Source: an uncultured Elusimicrobia bacterium (GTDB lineage: Bacteria > Elusimicrobiota > Elusimicrobia > Elusimicrobiales > Elusimicrobiaceae). Taken from it: a DNA stretch of 64,000 bases. The notes under the pieces are model-generated. The model saw only the letters and a program-made list of their open reading frames with translations, ran no database searches and was not told where the DNA came from. Made by a program: the position numbers and the translations under genes. Positions within the stretch are counted from its first letter, which is position 1. Each line of letters opens with the position of its first letter. Below, piece after piece: positions 1-54,531 of the stretch. The DNA is taken from positions 1-64,000 of the forward strand of contig CAMZGO010000004.1 of assembly GCA_947306425.1 (NCBI GenBank). The letters are read 5' to 3'.

Positions 1-1414
1 ACTGCCCGTTGCTCTTGCCAAATTCCCCGTCTATCTCATAACTGCCATCCCATGCTGTGCAAAATCTTAATGTCGTTAATCCCGCTTGACATGCTTCTTT
101 GGATTCAAAGGTGCTGCGTACTACATTACAATCTGAATGATCACAATCCCCAGAACTCCAAGAACAAAAACTATCACCGTTACACGAAGAACTGCCAGTA
201 TAAGATTTGCAAGGAGTGGAACTCTTGGAAGTACACGCCCCTGTTATAGTACAATAATCGGGAAGATTACTACAAGAAGTTAAATCGCCGCAAGTACTTT
301 CTTTATTATGACAACTTGCTTCATTTTTTTGGCAGTATGTACTAGGAAGAGTAAAATCACCTAAAGGACGACAGTATCCAGAAACAAACTGACAGTATTC
401 ATCATCATGTATGCAGGATTTAGACAAAGAACCTTCGGGTTTATCCCACTTACAAGGCTGGCCTAAGGTATTCCTAGCATTTTCACAGTCTTCTTGAGTA
501 TGATATTGTAAGCTGCAACCATCATAGCCTGCAACAGTATAACTTTTTGTAACACATTCAGCCGGTTTCCACTCACACGATTGGTCATTGTTACAGGCAT
601 TTTCATCTGAATCAAAATTATGACACTGTGTATCCTCTTTATCGGTACAGGTAAAGCCGCTGGTACTACAATATGAAGAACTATCAGCACACTCACTATA
701 ACTACTAATACTTTCACATGCATTGTCTTTTAGCTTACAATATGCCCATCTACAATCATCGCAACAGGAGATACCGGAAGTAGTATCTGTACTATACTGT
801 AAGTGTACCGGTACGCCCTTACAAATATTATCTACGCCTGAACCTTGGGCCGGGTACATCGCTATTGTCCTTATCGGAGGCGTGGAATCAGGACTATATG
901 GGTTTGCATTTGCCTGATACTTAAAGATGTCAAATAAAATTGATTGTATCGGAAAATCCCCGCTTGCTACTGTGCTTATATGATTACCATTACCACCAGA
1001 ACTAGCACTGGAATCTGAACTTTCCACTTTCCTTACAGGGTTTGAACATGTTACTTCAGCACACAAGGTCAAACAATGGTTCGGATATGGTGCTGCTGTT
1101 ACTGTATCAGGAAAAACATTATCAAATTCTATTAATGCTGAATTTACCCACGGGTCAACGGAAGACTGTCCATATCCATTTTGAACAGAATCAGTCCAAA
1201 AAGATCTATCAAGAACAGATGAATATTCCGAAGGCGAAACTATACACTGGAAATTGGCTGAAGCAGATAGAGGATATCCAACATAATTATTTGTTACCAT
1301 TGCCGTTTGGGCAAATAAACAAACCGTACCAAACAAAACAATAAAAAGCGCACCCAAAACAGGCACTGCTCTAAAATATACTTTACCTAAACCACTTTTG
1401 TTATCATTCATCAT
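1..1414 (-). CDS. Cysteine-rich secreted/surface protein, 5' part only
   Basis: An uninterrupted reading frame of 471 codons runs from a tandem ATG-ATG at 1414 off the left edge of the window, so the C terminus is missing. AAGGTG lies 10 nt upstream of the first ATG. Residues about 17-36 form a hydrophobic signal or anchor ending FAQ. The rest is polar, rich in Ser, Asp and Asn, and holds about 36 cysteines, denser towards the C-terminal half. Short units recur in which C-x-W is followed by another Cys (SCEWKPAEC, PCKWDKPEG, FCSWSSGDC), suggesting a repeated disulphide-bonded module. I do not recognise the family. An extracellular, disulphide-rich surface protein or adhesin is inferred. It lies 56 bp behind the TPR gene and on the same strand. 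Confidence 0.8.
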   Translation of the reverse strand, partial: MMNDNKSGLGKVYFRAVPVLGALFIVLFGTVCLFAQTAMVTNNYVGYPLSASANFQCIVSPSEYSSVLDRSFWTDSVQNGYGQSSVDPWVNSALIEFDNVFPDTVTAAPYPNHCLTLCAEVTCSNPVRKVESSDSSASSGGNGNHISTVASGDFPIQSILFDIFKYQANANPYSPDSTPPIRTIAMYPAQGSGVDNICKGVPVHLQYSTDTTSGISCCDDCRWAYCKLKDNACESISSYSECADSSSYCSTSGFTCTDKEDTQCHNFDSDENACNNDQSCEWKPAECVTKSYTVAGYDGCSLQYHTQEDCENARNTLGQPCKWDKPEGSLSKSCIHDDEYCQFVSGYCRPLGDFTLPSTYCQKNEASCHNKESTCGDLTSCSNLPDYCTITGACTSKSSTPCKSYTGSSSCNGDSFCSWSSGDCDHSDCNVVRSTFESKEACQAGLTTLRFCTAWDGSYEIDGEFGKSNGQ

Positions 1415-1470: not shown

Positions 1471-3054
1471 TCAATATTTTTTTAAACTTTCTGCCTTTGC
1501 CCGCTTCAACCCCTTCTTTGCTTTTTTATTTTCGGAATTCATTTTAAGGACATTTTCATAATGCCTAATAGCGTTCTCAAAATCTTTCAAAACAAAATAT
1601 AGTTCCGCTTTATGTAGATAAATTTCTTCGTCCTCCACTTCAGGCAAAGAGGAAAATATTTTTTGTGCTTCATCATATTGCCCTGCCTTAAAATAATACC
1701 AGGCAAGAGAATCTAAATAAGCAATTTCTTTGGGGCTTAATTTCAAAGCACGCATTACAAAATCGCGGCCCTCTTCTAAATTTTTCTTATTATCATTGTC
1801 AATCAAGAAATATCCCAAAAAATTTAATGCTTCCGCATTATTAGGATTTACTTTAAGTAATTTTCGCAAAAGTTCCTCCATTTTTGAATATTTCTTTCGC
1901 TCGTAAAGCAAAGTTGCATAATTAAAAAGTACAAGCTCATTTTCAGGAGAATTTTTTAAAATTTTTTCAAACACTTTTTCTGCTTTATTATATTCTTTTG
2001 CATCAATTAATGAGAGAGCATAGAAATAAGCGATTTCTTGATTGTCGTCAAATTTTTTATATGCGTTTTCCATTAAAGCAAGCAGTTCGTCTTTATTGGA
2101 AAGCATGCTTAAATAGTAACCGGCCTTGACTTGCAAAGACGGATTATTATCAAAATCTTTAATTTTTTTGAGGTAATTTAAAGCATTTTCATAACGGCCC
2201 TCTTGTTCTTCTTTAAGGACAAAATAACGTAAAGCATAAACGTTTGTTTCATCTAAATTAATAAGTGCCATAAAATATTCCTGCACCTTTTTTTCATCAT
2301 TATTAAGCAAAGCAAAATGTGCTAACATTTCTAAAACTTGTATATCGGCAAGACCGTCTTGTTGCATATCTTGATAAACTTTATAAAGGTTCTTATCGTC
2401 TTTTTTAGCTTGGTAAATTTTAATTAAAGCACTGTAAATTTCCTTCTTATTTTTAGTATATTTCAAGGTGTCATTTAAAGTTGAAATTGCTTTTTCTTCC
2501 TCTTTATTCTTTAAATAGATTTCGGCAATTTTTAAAGATATAAAAGCATCTGCCTGAGGGAAATTTTGAGAAATACTTTGCAAATATTCTATTGCTTTTT
2601 TTTGATTTTTGCTTGATAAAATGTTTGCATAGTGGAATGCAAGGTCCAAATTTTCTGGGTTATCATTTAGGGCTTTTTCATACTCTCCTAAAGCATTGGT
2701 TAAGGCACCTTCTCTTAAATAATAATCCCCAAGCAAAGTATAATTTTGCCATGTCTTATTCTTTATATTCTGAAGTTGTTCTTTACAAAAACTAAATTCC
2801 TTTTCCAAACTATTTAACGCCAGGTAACAATATTCTTGGATTATGGTTTTATCTTCGGGCGACTGCACCATAAGTTCTTTAAGCAAAGCCGCTGCTTCCA
2901 ACGGCTGATTATTATCTTTCAAAAAAAGCACCTGCAAAAATTTATTATAAAAATCCGCCCTCTTTTGTGCATTTTCAGATAAAGCAAATTCACCTTCCCA
3001 CGCGTGCAAGGAAACAGATATCAAGCATAGCAAAATTAAAATTTTTATCTTCAT
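1471..3054 (-). CDS. Secreted TPR-repeat protein
   Basis: The 527-residue product starts with a signal peptide (MKIKILILLCLISVSLHA). Helical repeats of about 34 residues with the TPR pattern fill the rest, for example YALSLIDAKEYNKAEKVFEK near the middle and AWYYFKAGQYDEAQKIF near residue 455. No enzymatic domain is visible. TPR proteins are scaffolds, so a periplasmic or outer-membrane-associated assembly role is likely, but the partner is unknown. The start codon overlaps the end of rimI by 4 nt (ATGA), so it is probably the last gene of the operon that begins at 5702. The C terminus is rich in lysine. Confidence 0.85.
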   Translation of the reverse strand: MKIKILILLCLISVSLHAWEGEFALSENAQKRADFYNKFLQVLFLKDNNQPLEAAALLKELMVQSPEDKTIIQEYCYLALNSLEKEFSFCKEQLQNIKNKTWQNYTLLGDYYLREGALTNALGEYEKALNDNPENLDLAFHYANILSSKNQKKAIEYLQSISQNFPQADAFISLKIAEIYLKNKEEEKAISTLNDTLKYTKNKKEIYSALIKIYQAKKDDKNLYKVYQDMQQDGLADIQVLEMLAHFALLNNDEKKVQEYFMALINLDETNVYALRYFVLKEEQEGRYENALNYLKKIKDFDNNPSLQVKAGYYLSMLSNKDELLALMENAYKKFDDNQEIAYFYALSLIDAKEYNKAEKVFEKILKNSPENELVLFNYATLLYERKKYSKMEELLRKLLKVNPNNAEALNFLGYFLIDNDNKKNLEEGRDFVMRALKLSPKEIAYLDSLAWYYFKAGQYDEAQKIFSSLPEVEDEEIYLHKAELYFVLKDFENAIRHYENVLKMNSENKKAKKGLKRAKAESLKKY

Positions 3055-6436: not shown

Positions 6437-6943
6437 TCAGTAAAAGAGATAAACACTGCGTCCGGCAATAACATTCTTATATACTGCACCTAATTTTTTA
6501 CATATTTTATTTGCTTGATTATTATTAGCATCTACAATACAAGTACCCTGATTCTTTGCACCGTAATTAGACGCATAATACCCATATCTAAACTCTACTT
6601 CAACATCCGTATTATTAACTTCATATATAACAGCGTTGCTATCATTTGAAAGCATAAACCAACCCCAATCGGTATAATAATAATTGCCATTTTTTCTATT
6701 ATATGGAACATCTACATCCAAGTCATCCATATTTATTGTCCCGACATTATGTATTAAACGATAATTTGTTCTGGCTTCTAGTAAAGCACGCATAACAGGG
6801 TAAAGCCCTTTGATTTTTGCCACTTTAGTTGCTACCTGATATTGCGGTAAAGCAATCGCCGCCAATATTCCGATAATCAAAACTACCACTAACAACTCAA
6901 GCAAGGTAAAACCTTTGCAATTTTTTTGTTTTTCTTTTTTCAT
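6437..6943 (-). CDS. Type IV pilin-like protein (structured-RNA leader class)
   Basis: A prepilin leader of 11 residues ends KG before F12, and E16 is the conserved Glu at position 5 of the mature protein. The hydrophobic helix runs to about residue 38 (ALPQYQVATKVAK). The 168-residue protein has a variable, Tyr/Asn-rich globular part with one Cys pair near the C terminus (TCIVDANNNQANKIC). It would be processed by prepilin peptidase and assembled into a pilus or pseudopilus; none of that machinery is in this window. AAAGGAG precedes the ATG. Upstream lie a palindromic repeat and a structured RNA (7168-7420). Similar pilin-like proteins are abundant in Elusimicrobium. Confidence 0.93.
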   Translation of the reverse strand: MKKEKQKNCKGFTLLELLVVVLIIGILAAIALPQYQVATKVAKIKGLYPVMRALLEARTNYRLIHNVGTINMDDLDVDVPYNRKNGNYYYTDWGWFMLSNDSNAVIYEVNNTDVEVEFRYGYYASNYGAKNQGTCIVDANNNQANKICKKLGAVYKNVIAGRSVYLFY

Positions 6944-6970
6944 TTTATTTCTCCTTTATTTTATTTAAGA

Positions 6971-8948: not shown

Positions 8949-9668
8949 TTACATTTTAAAGTTTTCGCCCAAATATAATTTACGGGCGTTATCATCCGAT
9001 AATAATTTATCGGGGCTGCCTTCTACCAAAATTTTGCCGTCATAGATTAGATAAGCGCGCTCGGTTAAAGGTAAGGTTTCACGCACATTATGGTCGGTAA
9101 TTAATATACCAAGCCCGCGGCTTTTAAGTTTAAAAATCATTTCCCTAAGTTCCGCAACAGTTATCGGGTCAATACCGACGAAAGGCTCATCAAGTAAAAT
9201 AATTTTAGGGTTACTTATCATACAACGGGCAATTTCCATACGCCGCTTTTCCCCGCCGGATAATGTCCACGCTTTTTGCTTGGCAAGTTTAGTTAAACCA
9301 AATTCCGTAAGAAGTTGTTCCACCCTTTCTATTCTTTTTTTAGGATTTGCTTCAAGACGTTCCAAAATAGCAAGCAAATTTTCCTCTACAGTAAGGCCGC
9401 GGAAAATTGTCGGTTCTTGCGCCAAATAACCAAGCCCGCAGCGCGCCCTCTCATACATAGGAAGTTTTGTAACATCTTTACCGTCAATAAATACCTTGCC
9501 CGAACTAGCAGCTATAAAACCAACAATCATATAAAATGAAGTTGTTTTCCCCGCTCCGTTCGGTCCAAGCAATCCAACAATTTCACCCGAATTAACTTTT
9601 AAAGAAACCCCTTTTACCACCAGGCGTTCTTTATAGGCCTTTTTTAAATCTACACCTAAAAGTTCCAT
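8949..9668 (-). CDS. lptB: LPS export ABC transporter ATPase LptB
   Basis: LptB is the ATPase that powers extraction of LPS from the inner membrane (LptB2FG). The 239-residue product has Walker A GPNGAGKTT, the Q-loop LAQEPTIFRGLTVEENL, signature LSGGEKRR, Walker B IILLDEP with FVGIDP, and the H-loop TDHNVRE. The LAQEPTIFRGLTVEEN stretch is specific to LptB among ABC proteins. I use the ATG at 9668, preceded by AAGGA six bases upstream, just after the lptA stop. LptF and LptG are not in the window. Confidence 0.95.
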   Translation of the reverse strand: MELLGVDLKKAYKERLVVKGVSLKVNSGEIVGLLGPNGAGKTTSFYMIVGFIAASSGKVFIDGKDVTKLPMYERARCGLGYLAQEPTIFRGLTVEENLLAILERLEANPKKRIERVEQLLTEFGLTKLAKQKAWTLSGGEKRRMEIARCMISNPKIILLDEPFVGIDPITVAELREMIFKLKSRGLGILITDHNVRETLPLTERAYLIYDGKILVEGSPDKLLSDDNARKLYLGENFKM

Positions 9669-9670
9669 AA

Positions 9671-10384
9671 TCAATCCTTTAACTTTTTAAGATTTTCTTT
9701 TGTAAGCAAATCCTTTTCCAAAGTAATCCAACCCTGTGAATTACCTAAAGCCTTAAACTCCTGCGTATTGGTATTAACGGTAATTTTGTCCGCTTGGAGT
9801 GCATAACTGCCGTCTTTATTTTTACCGATAAGAACAGGCCTTACTTTTAATGCTTCAAAAATACCGTTGATTCTGTCAAAAGTTGCACTTTCTGCCTTTA
9901 AGGTATTTTCTTTATCACTTAACTGTACATTACCGCTTACTTCAAAAAAACTTGCTTTCTTTGAAAATTCCACTTTATCTGCAATTAAAGTATAAATATT
10001 GTCAGGCGTTAGATAGATTATTTTTACTTGTGCTTTCTTAGTACCTTTGGCAAAGCCGAGGTCCTTTCTTTGGTTATAAAACACTTTATCTGCTGTTAAG
10101 GACAGGTAAGTTTCCCCTTCTATCCTTGATAAAAATACATTACCGGAAAGTTCATATTCTTTTGCTTTTCTTTTTGATAAAGCCCTATCTGCCAATATTT
10201 TGTAAACATCATTTTCGTAGCGGACATTTCCTATAAATTCTTCTTCAAAAACATCTTTTCTTATAACCCACCTATCACTTTTTACCATACCACCCAAAAG
10301 AAGTGAAATATCCCCCTCTTGTGTTTGACAAAAAACAAAAGGTGCAAGAAGAAAAAAGAAAAAAATCAAGTAAATATTCTTCAT
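9671..10384 (-). CDS. lptA: LptA/OstA-like periplasmic LPS transport protein
   Basis: This 237-residue protein has a signal peptide (MKNIYLIFFFFLLAPFVFC) and repeated beta-strand units of the OstA_N type (YELSGNVFLSRIEGETYLSLTADKVFY, FFEVSGNVQLSDKENTLKAESATFD). LptA forms the periplasmic bridge for LPS between LptC and LptD. It is longer than the Escherichia protein (about 185), which suggests one extra jelly-roll repeat. Its position between lptC and lptB, with a 4 nt overlap with lptC, supports the call. Confidence 0.85.
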   Translation of the reverse strand: MKNIYLIFFFFLLAPFVFCQTQEGDISLLLGGMVKSDRWVIRKDVFEEEFIGNVRYENDVYKILADRALSKRKAKEYELSGNVFLSRIEGETYLSLTADKVFYNQRKDLGFAKGTKKAQVKIIYLTPDNIYTLIADKVEFSKKASFFEVSGNVQLSDKENTLKAESATFDRINGIFEALKVRPVLIGKNKDGSYALQADKITVNTNTQEFKALGNSQGWITLEKDLLTKENLKKLKD

Positions 10385-10905
10385 TTTAATGCTTTTAAAC
10401 CGTCTAAATTAGGGGGTAAATCCGTTACTTGGTTAAAAATTTCTATATTGGCAAACCCGTTATCTGCTTTCAAAGCCTTACCTTTAACAGTTACCCCTCC
10501 CCTCTTTAAAGTGAAAGGAACATTTGTCCAGGCTGTTTTGGTGTCTGTATTATAAAAAAGTTTCTCGGTAGTAAGTTTTGAATTATCCTCTTTGACATTA
10601 ACTGTTACCGATCCCCAAAAAGTTATAACATTCTCTTTAAAGGATGCATTTTTCGCAATAAGGGTTGCTTCGTCTTTCTGACCGGAATTAAAAATAATTT
10701 TCGGGTTCACCATTGTAATATAACGGTCATCATAAAAATCGGCAGAACTTGCTTTAAGTTTCCAAGATGTAGCGCCGGAAGAAGTTTCCTGCATAACAAC
10801 ATCTTCCGCTCTTTGTGCAGGGATTACCTGCCCCGCACCTGAAGTATTATTTTGGCAGGCGCTTATCAAAAAAGGTAAAAAAATAAATATTAGAAACTTT
10901 TTCAT
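10381..10905 (-). CDS. lptC: LptC-like LPS export protein, predicted lipoprotein
   Basis: The start at 10905 (MKKFLIFIFLPFLISAC) gives a lipoprotein signal with lipobox LISAC and a 174-residue product. The body has the LptC pattern of strands (SWKLKASSADFYDDRYITMVNPKI, FWGSVTVNVKEDNSKLTTEKLFYN). LptC normally has an uncleaved membrane helix; here a lipidated cysteine would anchor it instead, an inference from the lipobox. It follows kdsD by one base and overlaps lptA by 4 nt. An in-frame ATG ten codons upstream is less likely. Confidence 0.82.
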   Translation of the reverse strand: MKKFLIFIFLPFLISACQNNTSGAGQVIPAQRAEDVVMQETSSGATSWKLKASSADFYDDRYITMVNPKIIFNSGQKDEATLIAKNASFKENVITFWGSVTVNVKEDNSKLTTEKLFYNTDTKTAWTNVPFTLKRGGVTVKGKALKADNGFANIEIFNQVTDLPPNLDGLKALK

Positions 10906-10906
10906 C

Positions 10907-11905
10907 TCACTTTTTTGCAAGGGCGATAAATTCAATTAAATTATCTTTATCTAAAAAACCAATAACTTTATTTTTAGAGTCTACCACCGGTGCATTATCA
11001 AATTTACGCTCATTTATAATTTTTGCCGCTTCTATGGCAGGCATATCTTTAGGGAAAGCAAAGGGGTTTTGTGTCATTACTTTGGTTATCTTAAGGTTTA
11101 ATATATCTTGCTTTTTTTGGAGTAAACGCCTTAAATCACCATCGGTAAAAAAACCTTTTAAACACCCCTTTTTGTCAACAACGGCTGCAGCGCCGGTTTT
11201 ATTTTTAGTCATTACAAGCAAAGTATCTTGCACCGTTGCACTTTCTGAAACTACGGGGTTTTTCCCTTTAAACATAATGTCTTTAACGAAATAAGTCAAC
11301 AATTTACCAAGGGTCCCGCCGGGATGAAAAAAGGCAAAGTCCTCTTTATGAAAATTCTTAATTTGCATTAAGCATATTGCCAAAGCATCGCCTAAAGCAA
11401 GCATCGCGGTTGTGGAGGAAGTCGGCGCAAGATTGTAAGGACAGGCCTCACGTTTAACTTTAACTTCAAGGCAAATATCTGCCATTTTACCAAGCGTGGA
11501 ATTTTTGTGCCCTGTTAAAGCAATAATTTTAATACGCTCTTTTTTAAGGGGGGTTAGAATTTTACTTAATTCTTCCGTCTCACCTGAAAAAGATAAAGCC
11601 AATACAATATCTTTAGTGGTAATCATACCAAGGTCCCCATGCAGGGCCTCTGTCGGATGTACAAAAAAGGAGGGTGTCCCCGTAGAAGCCAAAGTAGCAG
11701 AAATTTTGCGCCCTATATGCCCGCTCTTACCAATACCGACAACTACTAACCTCCCTCCGGATTTGCTTACAAGCAAGGCAGCATTAACAAAATCTTTCCC
11801 AAGCAATTTTGCAGTATCATTAAGGGCAGTTTCTTCTGAAACAAAAACTTCTTTAGCCCTTTTTAAAATATTTTCACTCTGTATTTTCTGGTTTATTTTA
11901 GCCAT
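10907..11905 (-). CDS. kdsD: Arabinose-5-phosphate isomerase (SIS plus two CBS domains)
   Basis: KdsD converts ribulose 5-phosphate to arabinose 5-phosphate, the first step of Kdo synthesis. The 332-residue product has a SIS domain at about residues 35-190 (GIGKSGHIGRKISATLASTG, HPTEALHGDLGM, SFSGETEEL) and two CBS motifs at about 210-330. Length and domain order match the KdsD/KpsF family. GGAGG seven bases before the ATG at 11905 is a strong ribosome site, placed inside the small ORF upstream. Confidence 0.95.
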   Translation of the reverse strand: MAKINQKIQSENILKRAKEVFVSEETALNDTAKLLGKDFVNAALLVSKSGGRLVVVGIGKSGHIGRKISATLASTGTPSFFVHPTEALHGDLGMITTKDIVLALSFSGETEELSKILTPLKKERIKIIALTGHKNSTLGKMADICLEVKVKREACPYNLAPTSSTTAMLALGDALAICLMQIKNFHKEDFAFFHPGGTLGKLLTYFVKDIMFKGKNPVVSESATVQDTLLVMTKNKTGAAAVVDKKGCLKGFFTDGDLRRLLQKKQDILNLKITKVMTQNPFAFPKDMPAIEAAKIINERKFDNAPVVDSKNKVIGFLDKDNLIEFIALAKK

Positions 11906-12063
11906 GGGGTAACCTCCGCAGAAATAGTTCTTTTATGATACGGCTTCGGTAGTTTGTCAGTTACCGCGCTGATAATAAAAAATAGGACAAGCAGACAAGC
12001 ATAAATAACAGCAACTGCTTTAAAAGTCTTGATAAATGTCTCTTTTAAATCATCTTTTGGCAT
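11893..12063 (-). CDS. Small membrane protein between kdsA and kdsD (56 residues)
   Basis: A 56-codon ORF starts at ATG 12063 inside the end of kdsA (19 nt overlap), with GAGG seven bases upstream. It ends at TAA 11893-11895, overlapping the kdsD start by 13 nt. The product starts MPKDDLKETFIKTFKAV, then has one transmembrane helix (AVAVIYACLLVLFFIISAV) and a short basic tail (DKLPKPYHKRTISAEV). Coupling on both sides and the strong ribosome site argue that it is real. I do not recognise the family. KdsC usually sits near this position in proteobacterial operons but is a phosphatase of about 190 residues, so this is not KdsC. Confidence 0.75.
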   Translation of the reverse strand: MPKDDLKETFIKTFKAVAVIYACLLVLFFIISAVTDKLPKPYHKRTISAEVTPWLK

Positions 12064-12893
12064 TTCGTTACCTCGTCAATAACGGTCATTTGCTTTATAA
12101 CTTCTTTTAATTCCGGCAAACTTAAAGTATTTGCTTTATCGGAAAGGGCTTGTTCCGGGTGCGGATGTGCCTCAAAAAATACACCTGCAATACCTGCACC
12201 GGCAGCGGCACGCGCCAAAGTTAGAGCAACGGTTTTATCACCGCCGGTTGAACCTGCACCGGACGGTTTTTGCATAGAGTGTGTTAAATCAAAAATAACG
12301 GGGTAAGCGCTACGGCGCATAATTTCAAAACTGCGCATATCTACCACCAAATCACCGTAACCGAAAGAGGCCCCGCGTTCCGTAAGCAAAATATTTCTAT
12401 TGCCTGTGCTTTCAATTTTCTTAATAATTTCACAAACCGCTTGCGGTGCTAAAAACTGCCCTTTTTTGACATTAATTACTTTACCCGTTTTTGCGGCTGC
12501 CAAAACCAAATCCGTTTGACGGCACAAAAAAGCCGGTATTTGTAAAATATCTGCAACTTTAGCAGCTTCTTTTGCTTGATAAGGTTCGTGAATATCTGTT
12601 AAAACCGGCACTTTATACTTTTGTTTTACTTCGGCGAGCAAAGCAAGGCCCTTTTCAAGCCCTACACCGCGGTAAGAATTAATTGAACTTCTATTTGCTT
12701 TATCAAAAGAGGCCTTAAAAACGAAAGGTACTTTTGCCCTTTTCATCAAAGCACAAATTTGTTTGGCAGTATCTAAAAATACCTTTTCGCCCTCAATTAC
12801 GCAAGGGCCGCCCATAAACACTAAAGGCAAAGTGTTTGAGAATTTAATATTACCAACTTTTACTGTTTTTTGTTTTATATTCATTTTTTCCAT
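12045..12893 (-). CDS. kdsA: 3-deoxy-8-phosphooctulonate (Kdo-8-P) synthase
   Basis: KdsA condenses phosphoenolpyruvate with arabinose 5-phosphate to make Kdo-8-phosphate for LPS inner core. The 282-residue TIM-barrel protein shows GGPCVIEG, FKASFDKANRSS, LTDIHEP, DILQIPAFLCRQTDL, NVKKGQF and DLTHSMQKP, all class features. The start at 12893 or the in-frame ATG at 12884 are both possible. It follows mgtC by four bases. Presence of kdsA, kdsD and lptABC in one operon shows the organism builds a Kdo-containing outer membrane. Confidence 0.96.
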   Translation of the reverse strand: MEKMNIKQKTVKVGNIKFSNTLPLVFMGGPCVIEGEKVFLDTAKQICALMKRAKVPFVFKASFDKANRSSINSYRGVGLEKGLALLAEVKQKYKVPVLTDIHEPYQAKEAAKVADILQIPAFLCRQTDLVLAAAKTGKVINVKKGQFLAPQAVCEIIKKIESTGNRNILLTERGASFGYGDLVVDMRSFEIMRRSAYPVIFDLTHSMQKPSGAGSTGGDKTVALTLARAAAGAGIAGVFFEAHPHPEQALSDKANTLSLPELKEVIKQMTVIDEVTKCQKMI

Positions 12894-12897
12894 ACAG

Positions 12898-13539
12898 TTA
12901 ACGGTCCAAACTTATAATTTGATTATCTGTAACAAGTTCTCTAAAAATTAATTTAAAAGAATTTTCGGACATATCCGTAACAAGTTTTAATACAATTTTC
13001 CCGTCCGATTTATAAAATTGTTTTTTGATTATTGTTCCGCCGGCATTTTTAATAGCATTATCAACTTTGGTAACAACTTCCATATTAGGTTCGCATTTAA
13101 CGGTGATATATTCAAAAGTTTTGACGGAATCAAAAGCATTTAAGGCCCTTCTCAAAAATATTTGCAAAATAAGCACACAAATTACAGCAAAACCGGCAAA
13201 AGCAAATTCACCATACCCCGTTGCCATACCTACAGCAGCAACTACCCAAATACCTGCCGCCGTAGTTAAGCCTGAAATTTTGTTACCTTCCCTTATTATT
13301 GAACCGGCACCCAAAAAACCGACGCCGGTTACTATTTGGGCAGCGATTCTTGCCGGATCTCCGCCGAAATATTGTGCCGATAACAAAGATACTATTGCAA
13401 AAACCGTTGAACCCAAACAAATTAAAGTATTTGTTGAAAACCCTGCCGGTTTATCATGGTACTGCCTCTCAAAACCCAACACAGCCCCGAAGAAGAACGA
13501 TAGAGATAATCTAATTAAAGCATCAGTTAATGTTATCAT
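12898..13539 (-). CDS. MgtC/SapB family membrane protein
   Basis: The 213-residue product has about five transmembrane helices and the MgtC signature: RLSLSFFFGAVLGFERQ, GSTVFAIVSL, DPARIAAQIVTGVGFLGAGSII and GLTTAAGIWVVAAVGMA. A small cytosolic ACT-like tail follows (about 140-213). MgtC proteins affect growth at low magnesium and, in pathogens, the F1Fo ATPase; the function here is unknown. It starts one base after the DUF1646 stop and is part of the envelope operon. Confidence 0.88.
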   Translation of the reverse strand: MITLTDALIRLSLSFFFGAVLGFERQYHDKPAGFSTNTLICLGSTVFAIVSLLSAQYFGGDPARIAAQIVTGVGFLGAGSIIREGNKISGLTTAAGIWVVAAVGMATGYGEFAFAGFAVICVLILQIFLRRALNAFDSVKTFEYITVKCEPNMEVVTKVDNAIKNAGGTIIKKQFYKSDGKIVLKLVTDMSENSFKLIFRELVTDNQIISLDR

Positions 13540-18997: not shown

Positions 18998-19465
18998 TTA
19001 TTTTTGTTTATAATAATACCACCAACCTGTGCCTGATGTCGAACCGATATTATCCCCTGTATCTCTTTTACAAATACGGTCTCTTATACTATTTCTATCA
19101 TACCCCACTACACGGCAAGCAAATGGTCTACCTGTACTTCTGTTAAGCGTATATTCTATCTCTCCACCTGTAATATTTATACTACAATATATTCTATTAT
19201 TTCCTTTATCTTCAAAAATATAACAACTTATACCTTTCGGTATTGTTATATCTAAATTATTCTGAACTCCTACATAGGTACCATGTATTAAATAGTATCT
19301 TTGTGCCGCATCTTGTACATTTCTGGTAATTGTTTTAACAGTTGACAATTTTGCTTTTCCAACTGCTAGCTGATATTGCGGCAAAGCAATAGCTGCTAAA
19401 ATACCTATAATTAAAACTACTACCAATAATTCTATTAAGGTAAAACCTTTTTTATTTATACTCAT
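18998..19465 (-). CDS. Type IV pilin-like protein (T-tract class)
   Basis: Prepilin of 155 residues with a six-residue basic leader plus G7 before F8 and Glu at mature position 5. The helix is followed by ALPQYQLAVGKAK and a variable globular part with cysteines at about residues 81, 93, 121 and 137. AGGAG precedes the ATG. The upstream region carries a 13 nt T tract next to TTGACA rather than the structured RNA leader seen at other pilins. It is convergent with trmL, with two bases between stop codons. Confidence 0.92.
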   Translation of the reverse strand: MSINKKGFTLIELLVVVLIIGILAAIALPQYQLAVGKAKLSTVKTITRNVQDAAQRYYLIHGTYVGVQNNLDITIPKGISCYIFEDKGNNRIYCSINITGGEIEYTLNRSTGRPFACRVVGYDRNSIRDRICKRDTGDNIGSTSGTGWWYYYKQK

Positions 19466-19506
19466 AATATCTCCTAATTTGATTTATACAGTATTTTTAT
19501 TTATAT

Positions 19507-20803: not shown

Positions 20804-21277
20804 TTAGTAAACCCAATAGCAAAGACCACTATTATTGGGGCAAGTCGGATATGCCTTTTTCGTTTCTTGTTTACACAAAATATTTGTGGGATGAGAGAGA
20901 TCTGCAGTGTAAACGTAACACAAATCAGGCTTAAGCGGATCTTTGTAAACGTAATAATTTACTTTAACCCCCAAAATATATCTACTCACCATAAACCGTG
21001 CACCGCCGCTCATTAAATCAGCAGTAATATCACTTGTTTGAAATTGTAAACCCAAGGCACTATAATTCGTAGGATAAGTGTCATTTTTTAAATAATAAAG
21101 ATGTATAGCTTCATCAATAATTCTTGCCCTAGATTTTAACTCGGAAAACTTAGTTCTTGCTACCGACAATTTATATTGCGGCAAAGCAATTGCTGCTAAA
21201 ATACCTATAATTAAAACTACAACTAAAAGTTCCAACAAAGTAAAACCTTTACGATTTTTTTTACAATTTTCTAACAT
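20804..21277 (-). CDS. Type IV pilin-like protein (T-tract class)
   Basis: Prepilin of 157 residues. The leader ends KG11 before F12, with Glu at mature position 5. After the common helix (ALPQYKLSVARTK) the globular region is unlike the other copies and ends in a Cys-rich tail (CKQETKKAYPTCPNNSGLCYWVY). GTGAGG precedes the ATG. Upstream at 21311-21337 is the same TTGACA/T-tract/CTAAAAT element as at the pilin at 18998, with the tract one base longer. Confidence 0.92.
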   Translation of the reverse strand: MLENCKKNRKGFTLLELLVVVLIIGILAAIALPQYKLSVARTKFSELKSRARIIDEAIHLYYLKNDTYPTNYSALGLQFQTSDITADLMSGGARFMVSRYILGVKVNYYVYKDPLKPDLCYVYTADLSHPTNILCKQETKKAYPTCPNNSGLCYWVY

Positions 21278-21310
21278 AAATTACCTCACAATAATATAGT
21301 TTATATTAAT

Positions 21311-28700: not shown

Positions 28701-29177
28701 TTAACCAAGAGTTTTACATATTTTACGCCCTATATTTGTATTTCCGTAACACCCTCTCTGTCTAGGATAATCTGAATTTAACAACCATTCTGTTATATAG
28801 AAATCTGATTCATTTTGACATTCATAATAATAACGATTTTCATCTTTGGCATATTCAGGACAATAAGCATACCGAATGTTATATGCAGAACCATTTATCA
28901 AATCAAATCTAAAATAATTATCACATACACCTGTTCCTTTTATTTCTTGACAATTCGTATCTAAATCCAAATCCTTGTGATGGCTAGAATAATGACCGTG
29001 AATTAAATAATAAATTTCTTCCGCTTGTTTTAATTGAAAAACTATCTCTCGCATATTAGCAAGACGGGCCCTTATAATTGTAATCCTATATTGCGGCAAA
29101 GCAATAGCCGCTAAAATACCGATAATTAAAACTACAACCAAAAGTTCAATTAATGTGAAACCTAATTTATTTTTCAT
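28701..29177 (-). CDS. Type IV pilin-like protein (T-tract class, tandem copy 1)
   Basis: Prepilin of 158 residues: short leader MKNKLG, cleavage before F7, Glu at mature position 5. The variable part after ALPQYRITIIRARLAN carries several cysteines (TNCQEIKGTGVC, YCPEYAK, YECQNES, GCYGN, RKIC). The first 29 or so codons and the upstream 115 bp are nearly identical in DNA sequence to the pilin at 29423, and the similarity stops abruptly at the end of the helix. Ribosome site is GGAGG. Confidence 0.92.
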   Translation of the reverse strand: MKNKLGFTLIELLVVVLIIGILAAIALPQYRITIIRARLANMREIVFQLKQAEEIYYLIHGHYSSHHKDLDLDTNCQEIKGTGVCDNYFRFDLINGSAYNIRYAYCPEYAKDENRYYYECQNESDFYITEWLLNSDYPRQRGCYGNTNIGRKICKTLG

Positions 29178-29291
29178 AAAACCTCCTAAAATGCTTTATA
29201 CAGCGTTTTTGTTTTATTATGTATAAATTTTACCAAAAAAAAAAAAAAAGCAAGTCAAGATCAATTTTGAGAGATTAAACAAGTGTTTTAT
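29089..29291 (-). repeat. Pilin 5' cassette, direct repeat copy 1
   Basis: About 203 bp nearly identical to 29856-30059: 5' flank, T tract, ribosome site and codons 1-29 of the pilin. The coding 3' parts of the two genes are unrelated. Weaker similarity continues upstream to about 29362 (matching up to 30134). Confidence 0.85.
29235..29259 (-). promoter_or_regulatory. T15 tract with TTGACT upstream of pilin
   Basis: Minus strand: CTTGACTTGC, 15 T, GG, TAAAAT. Compared with the second cassette, which has one extra base (TTGCG), the distance from TTGACT to TAAAAT differs by one. Confidence 0.45.
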
Positions 29292-29422: not shown

Positions 29423-29944
29423 TTAAGGAAGAGCCCACATAGCAGTCCAAACATTTTCATTTACATATTTAGGTTTACCATTAAAAATTTTTTCACAGTA
29501 ACTTCCTAAAACTCCATTAAAAATATGGGTACTTCTTTTCCTGTTTTCAAAACATAAATTTGTTTCTTTCGGAACCACTGAATATGGATGTTCCTTAAAT
29601 TTAAAAAACCCTGTCCCCGCATATTTTCCCTGTGTACGAGTCATCCCTATTCCGAATTGTCCTGCATCAATACTATAATTTACATTAATTACCCATTCTC
29701 CACCCCCTTTAAAATCTGAAGGAATATCAACATCTAATTCTTCTATGGAAGAAGGATAATTGCCCGTAGCTACTTGATATAGCATAGCAGCTTGATATGC
29801 ACTTTGCAATAATGTTAAAGCTTGCGCGGCTTTACTTTTTTCTACCGCTTTTTTATATTGCGGCAAAGCAATAGCCGCTAAAATACCGATAATTAAAACT
29901 ACAACCAAAAGTTCAATTAATGTGAAACCTAATTTATTTTTCAT
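29423..29944 (-). CDS. Type IV pilin-like protein (T-tract class, tandem copy 2)
   Basis: Prepilin of 173 residues with the same leader as the 28701 gene (MKNKLG, then F7). The rest after ALPQYKKAVEKSKAAQ differs entirely: fewer cysteines (LCFENRK, GSYCEKIF) and a Gly/Tyr-rich middle resembling the common pilin fold (VDIPSDFKGGGEW). Ribosome site GGAGG. It lies 245 bp upstream of the first copy and in the same direction. Confidence 0.92.
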   Translation of the reverse strand: MKNKLGFTLIELLVVVLIIGILAAIALPQYKKAVEKSKAAQALTLLQSAYQAAMLYQVATGNYPSSIEELDVDIPSDFKGGGEWVINVNYSIDAGQFGIGMTRTQGKYAGTGFFKFKEHPYSVVPKETNLCFENRKRSTHIFNGVLGSYCEKIFNGKPKYVNENVWTAMWALP

Positions 29945-30059
29945 AAAACCTCCTAAAATGCTTTATACAGCGTTTTTGTTTTATTATGTATAAATTTTAC
30001 CAAAAAAAAAAAAAAACGCAAGTCAAGAGCAATTTTGAGAAATTAAACAAGTGTTTTAT
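29856..30059 (-). repeat. Pilin 5' cassette, direct repeat copy 2
   Basis: Second copy of the cassette at 29089-29291, offset by 767-768 bp. It differs at a few bases, including one extra base beside the T tract (30002-30016). Confidence 0.85.
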
Positions 30060-30126: not shown

Positions 30127-30485
30127 TAAAAAGTGGTCTAATGGTCAAAAATGTTGCTGATTAAGTATCTTTTCCTTAAAATTGTTGCTCTTTTATTTTC
30201 CTCCCCCTTTGCCGTTTTATTTTTGCCTTAGCAAAAATAAGAAAGGGCGGAGGGGTTAGGGGTGGGGGTTGCCCATTAATACATTTTACGTCTCTGAAGT
30301 TTACTAATAAGGTACCCCCCTCTTGCCTCGCAAATAAAATTTGCTCGGCTTTCTCCCGCCCATTTTTTACATAGATAAAGACCGTAAAAAATGGGTGGCG
30401 AAAATAAAAGAGAAAGCAAAAAAATAACATTCCATCATTTTTGATACGGTATTAGCAACATTTTTTACCATTAGGCCTAAAAAGT
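30127..30485. mobile_element. MITE with 24 bp inverted ends and 8 bp target duplication
   Basis: A 343 bp body (30135-30477) begins GGTCTAATGG-TCAAAAATGTTGCT. It ends with the inverse of GGCCTAATGG-TAAAAAATGTTGCT, so 22 of 24 end bases match. TAAAAAGT flanks both sides (30127-30134 and 30478-30485), a likely target-site duplication. The paralogous site at 29355-29362 has a single TAAAAAGT with no insert. The interior holds perfect hairpins (30216-30239, and CCCATTTTTTAC/GTAAAAAATGGG near 30359-30395) and a G/C-rich repeat, but no transposase. Ends starting GG with 8 bp duplication fit several IS families; I cannot assign one. Confidence 0.85.
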
Positions 30486-38682: not shown

Positions 38683-38716
38683 AAGATTTTGTTAAAAAAC
38701 AAAAAGGAGAAATAAA

Positions 38717-39286
38717 ATGAAAAAAGAAAATAATAAAAATTACAAGTTAGGTTTTACCTTACTTGAACTGTTGGTAGTAGTGCTTATTATTGGTATTCTT
38801 GCAGCAGTAGCTCTACCACAATATAGAATAGCAAAAATGAAAGCCGAAGTAGCAAGGATACTACCTATAATGAAACAGTGGAAAGATTCTTTACAAGAGT
38901 GGAAGCATCTTTATGGTAATTATTGTAAAGATGGGAAAGGGACGGATAATTCTTGTGATGAAATTCCAAACGGTGCAGATTTAGGGGTTAATTGGCCTTC
39001 TGACTGGAAACAGGGCAGTAATTCTTGTGGGGATAATACAGAATGTGTTAGTCCTGGAAGGAAGTGGAACTGTTATACCCACGCTAACGGAAATATTTAC
39101 TGTAAAGAACTTAATAAAAATTTTTCTATAATAATGTACCAACCTGATTATTTTTATGAGGTGCTAAAAGAACTGCGAAATAAAATAGGTTGCACTGCAT
39201 TTAGTGAAGATAGTAAAAAAATATGCCAAAAACTTGGCGGCAAATTCGTTAAAGAATTGGATGGTACTTATTATTATGAACTTTAA
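38717..39286 (+). CDS. Type IV pilin-like protein (structured-RNA leader class)
   Basis: Prepilin of 189 residues, the longest of the seven. The leader ends LG12 before F13, Glu at mature position 5, then AVALPQYRIAKMKAEVAR. The globular part has eight cysteines, including YCKDGKGTDNSCDE, SCGDNTEC and NCYTHANGNIYCKE, and an IGCTAF...KICQKLGG tail similar to that of other pilins here. AAGGAG precedes the ATG. Its mRNA would carry the structured RNA at 38353-38603 unless transcription stops there. Confidence 0.92.
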   Translation: MKKENNKNYKLGFTLLELLVVVLIIGILAAVALPQYRIAKMKAEVARILPIMKQWKDSLQEWKHLYGNYCKDGKGTDNSCDEIPNGADLGVNWPSDWKQGSNSCGDNTECVSPGRKWNCYTHANGNIYCKELNKNFSIIMYQPDYFYEVLKELRNKIGCTAFSEDSKKICQKLGGKFVKELDGTYYYEL

Positions 39287-53980: not shown

Positions 53981-54006
53981 ACTTTAGTTAAATTACAGGA
54001 GAAATT

Positions 54007-54531
54007 ATGAAAGAAAAAAATATAAACACAAACAAAAAATTCACTAAAGGTTTTACTTTGATTGAACTTTTGGTAGTTGTTTTAATAATCGGTATACTTG
54101 CGGCTATTGCTCTGCCGCAATACCGCCATGCCGTCATAAAAAGCAGATATGCCGCTATGAAAGATATGGTTAGAAGTATAGCACAAATGGAAAGAGATTA
54201 TTATTTAATTCATGATGAATACACACAAAAGTTTTCAGACTTAATTATAGATTTGAACTGTCTAAATGGAAGCAGTGGAAGAAGCTGCGCTATAAAAAAT
54301 AAAATGACAATTTATATAACTGATTGGCAAGTATACGGGATTTTATCAACTAACAAAGCAGAATTATATTTCGCGTCATATTATGACTCTAGTAATATAT
54401 ATTGCCAAGCATATAAAAATAATATTCAACCATCTGATTTCGAATATAAATTTTGCCAAAATGAAACAGGAAAAACTACACCTTGGATTTATCCTAACAA
54501 CAAAAGCTACGTTGCTTTCAAATACAATTAA
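54007..54531 (+). CDS. Type IV pilin-like protein (structured-RNA leader class)
   Basis: Prepilin of 174 residues. A 15-residue leader ends KG before F16, with Glu at mature position 5 and ALPQYRHAVIKSRYAAM after the helix. The globular region has two Cys pairs (LNCLNGSSGRSC; IYCQAYK...KFCQNE). AGGAG precedes the ATG. Structured RNA copy C and a palindromic repeat fill the leader. It converges directly with ccdA. Confidence 0.92.
   Translation: MKEKNINTNKKFTKGFTLIELLVVVLIIGILAAIALPQYRHAVIKSRYAAMKDMVRSIAQMERDYYLIHDEYTQKFSDLIIDLNCLNGSSGRSCAIKNKMTIYITDWQVYGILSTNKAELYFASYYDSSNIYCQAYKNNIQPSDFEYKFCQNETGKTTPWIYPNNKSYVAFKYN

What the first reader, a model, noticed from the sequence alone, without database searches (positions are those of the whole stretch)
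1..1414. Long cysteine-rich secreted protein with C-x-W repeats
The first 1.4 kb is one open frame on the minus strand with a signal sequence and about 36 cysteines in 471 codons, including repeated C-x-W...C units. Standard bacterial families with this pattern are few; it resembles in style disulphide-rich surface antigens of eukaryotic microbes, but no homology is claimed. A CcdA-like thiol transporter and Cys-containing pilins in the same window fit an organism that handles many periplasmic disulphides.
Basis: partly seen in the sequence, partly recalled or inferred. Interest (0 to 1): 0.55.

Follow-up and report, generated by a model that had tools for sequence, protein, structure and literature searches.

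The report
Variable cysteine-rich head of pilus-locus protein
A gut bacterium of the little-known phylum Elusimicrobiota appears to make a giant surface protein, encoded beside its Tad-pilus genes, whose front end carries a fast-changing, probably disulphide-stapled loop that may be a binding or antigenic head; the protein is widespread among its relatives, but the cysteine-rich loop is special to this family of bacteria.

Summary
Bases 2-1414 (minus) are an open 471-codon frame with a signal sequence and 37 cysteines. It is no remnant: the contig ends at base 1 and relatives are complete, at 1049-1824 codons. The source is an Elusimicrobiaceae genome. The whole protein has an N-domain with four cysteines, a lineage-specific cysteine-rich insert, a conserved CxWDG block, FlgD-Ig domains and a weakly T9SS-like tail. 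The insert is 21-30 residues with 0-1 Cys in the sister family, 69-297 residues with 7-35 Cys in the window's genus. Cysteines from the mature start to CxWDG are even in number in 33 of 33 family sequences, as expected if all are paired; C-x-W occurs 31 times against 4.5 in shuffles. The gene heads a Tad-pilus locus with a PorV/PorQ-like gene in 26 of 26 loci checked. Best reading: a surface-exported Tad-locus adhesin or antigen with a variable disulphide head. The unit has no significant match in Pfam or PDB; weak pointers lead to PSI domains. An SprA-like protein occurs in 162 of 198 Elusimicrobiota genomes. Surface location, adhesion and export route are inferred.

The parts
2..1414 (-). 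N-terminal 471 codons of the Tad-locus surface protein (gene cut by contig end)
   Evidence: open frame; full-length relatives P0002 (1650 aa) and P0003 (1640 aa)
1310..1414 (-). signal sequence, residues 1-35 (LFA|QTAMV)
   Evidence: sequence; Q at the mature start conserved in 38 of 42 sequences
863..1309 (-). conserved N-domain, residues 36-184, 4 Cys (C57, C114, C118, C123)
   Evidence: alignment of 42 sequences; 68-70% identical to L038/L039
62..862 (-). cysteine-rich hypervariable insert, residues 185-451, 267 aa, 31 Cys, 4 C-x-W
   Evidence: 36-43% identical to the L038/L039 inserts
554..625 (-). four-Cys unit 1, residues 264-287
413..517 (-). four-Cys unit 2, residues 300-334
143..211 (-). 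four-Cys unit 3, residues 402-424
2..61 (-). start of the conserved block CTAWDGSYEIDGEFGKSNGQ (C452), after which the contig ends
   Evidence: this Cys in 42 of 42
1471..3054 (-). TPR protein directly upstream, same strand; a relative of it lies upstream in other genomes of the genus

Best explanation
The gene encodes a giant, Sec-exported, outer-surface protein that belongs to the Tad (Flp) pilus locus of these Elusimicrobiota and most likely acts as an adhesin or surface antigen. The C-terminal ~1100 residues, with FlgD-type Ig domains, form a conserved stalk with a T9SS-like tail. A PorV/PorQ-like outer-membrane protein encoded next door, and possibly a divergent SprA-like translocon encoded elsewhere, help it across or onto the outer membrane. 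The N-domain at the far end displays one loop which, in Elusimicrobiaceae, has been expanded into a string of four-cysteine C-x-W units held by disulphides. The disulphide scaffold lets the loop change sequence and length quickly while staying folded, so it serves as the variable binding or antigenic head. Shown here: architecture, insert boundary and variability, cysteine parity, locus conservation, presence of PorV-like and SprA-like genes. Inferred: surface location, export route, adhesion, partner.
For: Full-length relatives and domains: FlgD-type families in 27 of 27 complete members; PDB at E<=0.1: only FlgD chains, best E 5.6e-4. Order-wide: 52 of 60 relatives match at E<=10, 50 of them at E<=0.001; 3 of the 8 without a match (G005, G013, G016) hold the 3' part. 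Phylum: 90 of 198 genomes. Insert: 21-30 aa with 0-1 Cys in 9 of 9 f2 sequences, 86-161 aa with 7-15 Cys in 14 of 14 of g6, 69-297 aa with 7-35 Cys in 14 of 14 of g1. Cys number from the mature start to the Cys of CxWDG even in 33 of 33 f1 sequences and 7 of 9 f2; rest of the protein even in 20 of 21 complete f1 sequences. Diversification: L038 vs L039 68% identical in the N-domain, 36% in the insert, 76% in the 1127-residue rest; P0001 vs both 68-70%, 36-43%, and 90-95% of the 20 residues held. Paralogues in G015 and G027 show 65-79% N-domain, 39-51% insert, 100% of the 39-103 residues that follow. Locus: PorV-like and Tad genes follow in 26 of 26 loci with sequence downstream; family identification of those genes.
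Against: No direct evidence of surface location or adhesion. The T9SS-like tail is below its curated cut-off (21.0 against 23 bits) and rings in only 11 of 27 members at E<=0.01. In the own genome the GldL motor and other CTD cargo were not found. The PorV-like gene is over the cut-off of PF03687 but under that of NF033709. The structure prediction of P0001 failed (mean pLDDT 35). Two of nine f2 sequences and one of 21 C-terminal parts break the even rule. Variability among species is also what weak constraint would give.
Confidence: 0.55

Rival explanations
1. Structural or assembly part of the Tad machine (outer-membrane or pilus-base scaffold); the insert is a tolerated decoration that faces outwards and drifts, held by disulphides but without a binding role.
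For: One copy heading the Tad locus in most genomes, conserved order; conserved stalk and N-domain; the f2 and g3-g5 relatives have almost no insert.
Against: Extra copies outside the locus in G015 and G027 with different heads; C-x-W and cysteine parity are kept under strong sequence change, which drift alone would not keep.
Confidence: 0.2
2. The head is variable because it is a target of phages or of host antibodies, that is an antigen or receptor under escape, not primarily an adhesin.
For: Insert identity far below that of its flanks; paralogues with different heads and near-identical 3' parts, 94.6-97.4% of 149-314 bases.
Against: No phage, host or strain-level data here; does not explain why the insert is rich in disulphides.
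Confidence: 0.15
3. Cysteine-rich metal- or redox-active segment.
For: Cysteine density only.
Against: Even cysteine number in 33 of 33, spacing C-x7..9-C-x4..10-C-x-W in 23 units, Sec signal, conserved Trp; one CxxC only in the window protein.
Confidence: 0.04

Closest known systems
Tad/Flp (tight adherence) pilus loci
   Same: The gene is followed by PorV-like, TadE, CpaB/RcpC, secretin, TadZ/TadA and T2SSF-type genes. Tad systems in Elusimicrobia are in print (PMC6668835, one passage seen).
   Different: I recall no described Tad locus headed by a 1000-1800-residue FlgD-Ig protein with a PorV-like partner; searches showed none in their listings.
Type IX secretion cargo with PorV/SprA
   Same: Signal peptide, long Ig-domain body, T9SS-like tail, neighbouring PorV/PorQ-like gene, SprA-like protein in the genome.
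   Different: No GldL motor or further CTD cargo found in the own genome; SprA-like and tail scores below curated cut-offs.
FlgD Ig-like domain proteins
   Same: PF13860 at 62 bits against 27 in P0002; FlgD chains are the only PDB matches of the family profile at E<=0.1.
   Different: Several such domains on a secreted giant protein; no sign of a flagellar role.
PSI domains (semaphorins, plexins, Met)
   Same: Best, non-significant, pointers of the four-Cys unit: Semaphorin-4D 486-508 by sequence profile (E 0.98); a chain of the Sema3A/PlexinA4/Neuropilin complex by Foldseek (E 4.4); a chain of the Met/InlB complex, 514-550, by VIA-align (Z 2.2). That these stretches are PSI domains is recalled.
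   Different: Four Cys per unit, fewer than in PSI (recalled); no Pfam PSI match.
Variable surface antigens of protists (Paramecium surface antigen, trypanosome VSG)
   Same: Repeated C..C..C-x-W..C style (recalled for Paramecium); a trypanosome VSG domain is the best VIA match of the unit (Z 3.6).
   Different: No Pfam match at E<=10; the VSG match is within chance for so small a model.

Membership tests
Tad/Flp pilus locus (neighbouring genes) | RcpC/CpaB | tested here: met
   TIGR03177 125.3 bits over cut-off 71
Tad/Flp pilus locus (neighbouring genes) | secretin | tested here: met
   PF00263 146 bits over 27.5
Tad/Flp pilus locus (neighbouring genes) | TadA ATPase | tested here: inconclusive
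   PF00437 207.8 over 24.9; TIGR03819 329 bits, best family but under its 373 cut-off
Tad/Flp pilus locus (neighbouring genes) | T2SSF platform proteins (TadB, TadC) | tested here: met
   PF00482 69.4 over 25.2; the second protein, cut by the stretch, 24.7, just under
Tad/Flp pilus locus (neighbouring genes) | TadE pseudopilin | tested here: met
   PF07811 31.7 over 22.9
Tad/Flp pilus locus (neighbouring genes) | major Flp pilin and TadV peptidase | not tested
   not looked for
Type IX secretion cargo | C-terminal sorting domain TIGR04183 | tested here: inconclusive
   P0003 21.0 bits under cut-off 23; 11 of 27 members at E<=0.01; the window protein lacks this end
Type IX secretion cargo | SprA/Sov translocon in the genome | tested here: inconclusive
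   SprA-like gene, 87.5 bits, E 3.4e-25 for the own copy, under cut-off 200; no PDB match of its profile at E<=0.01
Type IX secretion cargo | PorV shuttle | tested here: inconclusive
   PF03687 28.1 over 21.4; NF033709 78.6 under 90
Type IX secretion cargo | PorL/GldL motor in the own genome | tested here: not met
   TIGR03513: 0 matches at E<=0.1 in a 99.37% complete genome
Type IX secretion cargo | PorU sortase (C25) | tested here: inconclusive
   PF01364 rang nowhere, controls included
FlgD Ig-like domain proteins | PF13860 | tested here: met
   62 and 56 bits over 27 in two full-length relatives; not in the part held in the window
PSI domain / Paramecium surface antigen | sequence match to the Pfam models | tested here: not met
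   0 families at E<=10 for P0001; neither of these for 9 other N-terminal regions
PSI domain | fold of the unit | tested here: inconclusive
   unit model pLDDT 70.7; Foldseek and VIA pointers not significant

The most novel reading that the evidence does not exclude
Elusimicrobiota carry a reduced T9SS-like export route (SprA-like plus PorV-like, without the known motor) coupled to a Tad pilus, which displays a giant adhesin; in gut Elusimicrobiaceae its head is a hypervariable chain of PSI-like disulphide units used to hold on to ciliates or other eukaryotic cells, a bacterial counterpart of the variable disulphide-rich antigens of protists. Elusimicrobia were proportionally higher in all protozoa-associated rumen fractions in one study (PMC6217230, passage seen), which fits but is at phylum level.
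Probability: 0.12. Interest if true: 0.85.

Novelty: new variant of a known kind. Interest (0 to 1): 0.57.

Why it matters
Large variable disulphide heads on conserved stalks are best known from eukaryotic parasites (recalled); a bacterial one, tied to a pilus locus in a poorly studied gut phylum, would be a ready handle on what these bacteria attach to. The SprA-like gene across the phylum also bears on the statement, seen in papers here, that type IX secretion is confined to Bacteroidetes or to the Fibrobacteres-Bacteroidetes-Chlorobi group (PMC4793230; PMC11205867; PMC7906972, start of abstract).

Tried and rejected
Remnant or frameshift: rejected; the frame ends with the contig and relatives are complete. 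Known cysteine-rich family by sequence: none in Pfam, NCBIfam or PDB. AlphaFold2 on P0001 with two relatives: mean pLDDT 35, discarded. AlphaFold2 on a 35-residue unit with ten rows: pLDDT 70.7, a short helix and a hairpin; structure search gave nothing with E<=0.001. Fusion of the protein with the PorV-like gene in G044: the frame does run through, but the PorV-like part keeps its own Met and signal sequence, so not counted as a fusion. Exact-repeat explanation of the contig break: the shared 3' parts of paralogues in G015 and G027 are 94.6-97.4% identical in DNA, not identical; the reason for the break in G000 is open. Tandem copies in G012: 99.88% identical over 4048 bases, so recent duplication or conversion; the aligned mature parts are identical, the signal regions differ. 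Foreign base composition of the insert: G+C 0.398 against 0.368 for the window, no sign. Literature for this protein: the listings of searches showed no description; one search was too broad to be informative.

Rows left out: four ORF fragments of two loci (three of G048, one of G055) were dropped before the alignment of 42. L067 was not scored for gene order because a longer overlapping frame displaced it, L078 holds no family member in the list, and L038 and the loci cut by a contig end have no sequence downstream. The parity counts take in related sequences and two identical ones.

Full report
What is in the window. Bases 2-1414 on the minus strand are one open frame of 471 codons with a signal sequence and 37 cysteines. 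The window begins at base 1 of contig C4 of a 1.44-Mb, 99.37% complete genome, so the frame is cut by the assembly. Two named relatives found by sequence are 'Elusimicrobiaceae bacterium' metagenome genomes: L038 (JAEEIL010000026.1) and L039 (JAFZUQ010000008.1, titled water buffalo rumen). These are complete at 1650 and 1640 codons. A match to the last 17 residues of L039 begins contig C3 of the window's genome (E 0.245 on its own), and the PorV-like gene that follows the protein in relatives comes right after it there. So about 1150 codons are missing between two contigs.

Architecture. From relatives: signal peptide, N-domain with conserved cysteines, cysteine-rich insert, an invariant Cys two residues before the W of a WDG.Y...GEFGK.NG block, a long region in which FlgD Ig-like domains are recognised (PF13860, 62 and 56 bits over a cut-off of 27; FlgD-type families in 27 of 27 complete members; FlgD chains the only PDB matches of the family profile at E<=0.1), and a tail that resembles the T9SS sorting domain weakly (21.0 bits under a cut-off of 23; 11 of 27 members at E<=0.01).

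The insert is lineage-specific. In an alignment of 42 N-terminal parts, the stretch between TPPxRTI and the Cys before WDG is 21-30 residues with 0 or 1 Cys in 9 of 9 sequences of the sister family f2, 20-25 residues with 1 Cys in the three of genera g3-g5, 61-90 residues with 3-5 Cys in the two of g2, 86-161 residues with 7-15 Cys in 14 of 14 of g6, and 69-297 residues with 7-35 Cys in 14 of 14 of the window's genus. Families beyond f1 and f2 were not examined for the insert.

Disulphides. From the mature start to the Cys of CxWDG the cysteine number is even in 33 of 33 sequences of family f1 and in 7 of 9 of f2; in the rest of the protein it is even in 20 of 21 complete f1 sequences and 7 of 8 of f2. 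These sequences are related, and two of the 33 are identical, so the count is not a probability; but the number ranges from 6 to 40 and the inserts are mostly too different to have simply inherited it. Even numbers across such a range are what full pairing within the N-terminal part would give. C-x-W is seen 31 times among 42 Trp in the genus, shuffle mean 4.5. In 23 four-cysteine units of the form C-x7..9-C-x4..10-C-x-W..C the four Cys and the Trp are invariant; the search pattern itself required them, so only the spacing and number of such units are informative.

Variability. Pairs of relatives show the insert changing faster than its flanks: L038 against L039 68% N-domain, 36% insert, 76% rest; L047 against L050 71%, 46%, 81%; L047 against L043 65%, 35%, 78%; a closer pair, L046 and L048, 91%, 84% and 98%. 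Copies at other loci exist: in G027 one in the usual neighbourhood and two elsewhere (next to a phosphofructokinase and an MFS transporter gene), in G015 two in unusual neighbourhoods, with different heads but the same residues after the head over the 39-103 that are held. Their DNA there is 94.6-97.4% identical, against 79-88% for most matched stretches upstream, though one upstream stretch of 221 bases in G027 and one of 27 bases in G015 are also about 97%. G012 has two tandem copies, 99.88% identical over 4048 bases. The single-contig genome G018 shows one copy plus one weak match, so a stock of silent heads is not general.

Locus. In 26 of 26 loci with a family member and sequence downstream, a PorV/PorQ-like gene and Tad genes follow within a few frames (in L069 the PorV-like part lies in the same open frame; a second copy stands between in L045 and L068). 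In the own genome C3 reads PorV-like, TadE, CpaB/RcpC, secretin, TadZ-TadA-like, two T2SSF proteins, TPR, sensor kinases and a further TadE-like protein. The upstream neighbour, a TPR protein, is shared in the genus; in G022 of g6 a TsaD gene, a 401-residue protein and a GGDEF protein stand upstream, and frames of matching sizes do so in other g6 genomes, so the conserved link is with the Tad side.

Export. An SprA/Sov-like protein, mostly 1750-1950 residues, was found in 59 of 60 relatives and 162 of 198 genomes of the phylum, never over the family's cut-off, and in 0 of 14 control genomes. Full-length scans gave 87.5, 126.3 and 108.2 bits for three of them, with no other NCBIfam family at E<=0.01; a profile of ten found no PDB chain at E<=0.01. 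Of the 20 listed genomes without it 19 are of family f10, many of them small; 16 more are not listed. 89 of the 90 genomes with the surface protein have it; the exception is G184 (compared by eye). It is also in 73 of the other 108, so it must have other uses. In the own genome GldL and TIGR04183 tails were not found; the PorU test was void because nothing rang. A full T9SS is therefore not shown; the export route is inference.

Mechanism. Most likely a Tad-locus surface protein with an Ig stalk and a variable disulphide head (0.55). Steps shown: architecture, insert, parity, locus. Steps inferred: surface exposure, adhesion, partner. Rivals: a structural part of the Tad machine with a drifting decoration (0.2); an antigen shaped by phage or host escape (0.15); a metal- or redox-active segment (0.04).

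Known relatives of the head. None by sequence. Three weak, non-significant comparisons all touch entries of proteins that, as I recall, contain PSI domains, and one a trypanosome VSG domain. With a unit of 21-35 residues this can be the common look of small disulphide hairpins; I report it as a lead only.

Literature. PMC6668835 (one passage) reports Tad systems in Elusimicrobia. PMC4793230 (passage) found T9SS in Bacteroidetes and in no other clade; PMC11205867 (abstract and introduction passages) places it in the Fibrobacteres-Bacteroidetes-Chlorobi group; PMC7906972 (start of abstract in a listing) calls it confined to Bacteroidetes. PMC6217230 (passage) found Elusimicrobia higher in all protozoa-associated rumen fractions. 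No description of this protein turned up in the search listings named under Tried and rejected; subscription papers are not held.

Noticed in passing
L094:7895-13372 (G000:C6:67894-73371, +): SprA/Sov-like protein; such proteins in 162 of 198 Elusimicrobiota genomes, below the curated cut-off but the only NCBIfam family matched in three full-length scans; missing from several small genomes of family f10.
   Followed up: partly
window 30134-30407 and L082:18759-19032: A 274-base element occurs twice, 100% identical, on opposite strands of the two stretches, with a short open frame.
   Followed up: partly
window 6440-6955, 19001-19483, 20807-21280, 28704-29195, 29426-29962, 38696-39283, 53992-54528: At least seven scattered single type IV pilin-like genes with nearly the same N-terminal methylation motif (two checked by Pfam).
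   Followed up: no
   Followed up: partly
L045:4647-8864 and 9053-13207 (genome G012): Two tandem copies of the surface protein gene, 99.88% identical over 4048 bases, while the signal regions differ.
   Followed up: partly
G000, G001, G004, G008, G013, G015, G024, G026, G029, G031: Contigs of many metagenome assemblies break inside this gene; in G000, G004, G008, G013 and G026 only the last 17-49 codons turn up on another contig.
   Followed up: partly
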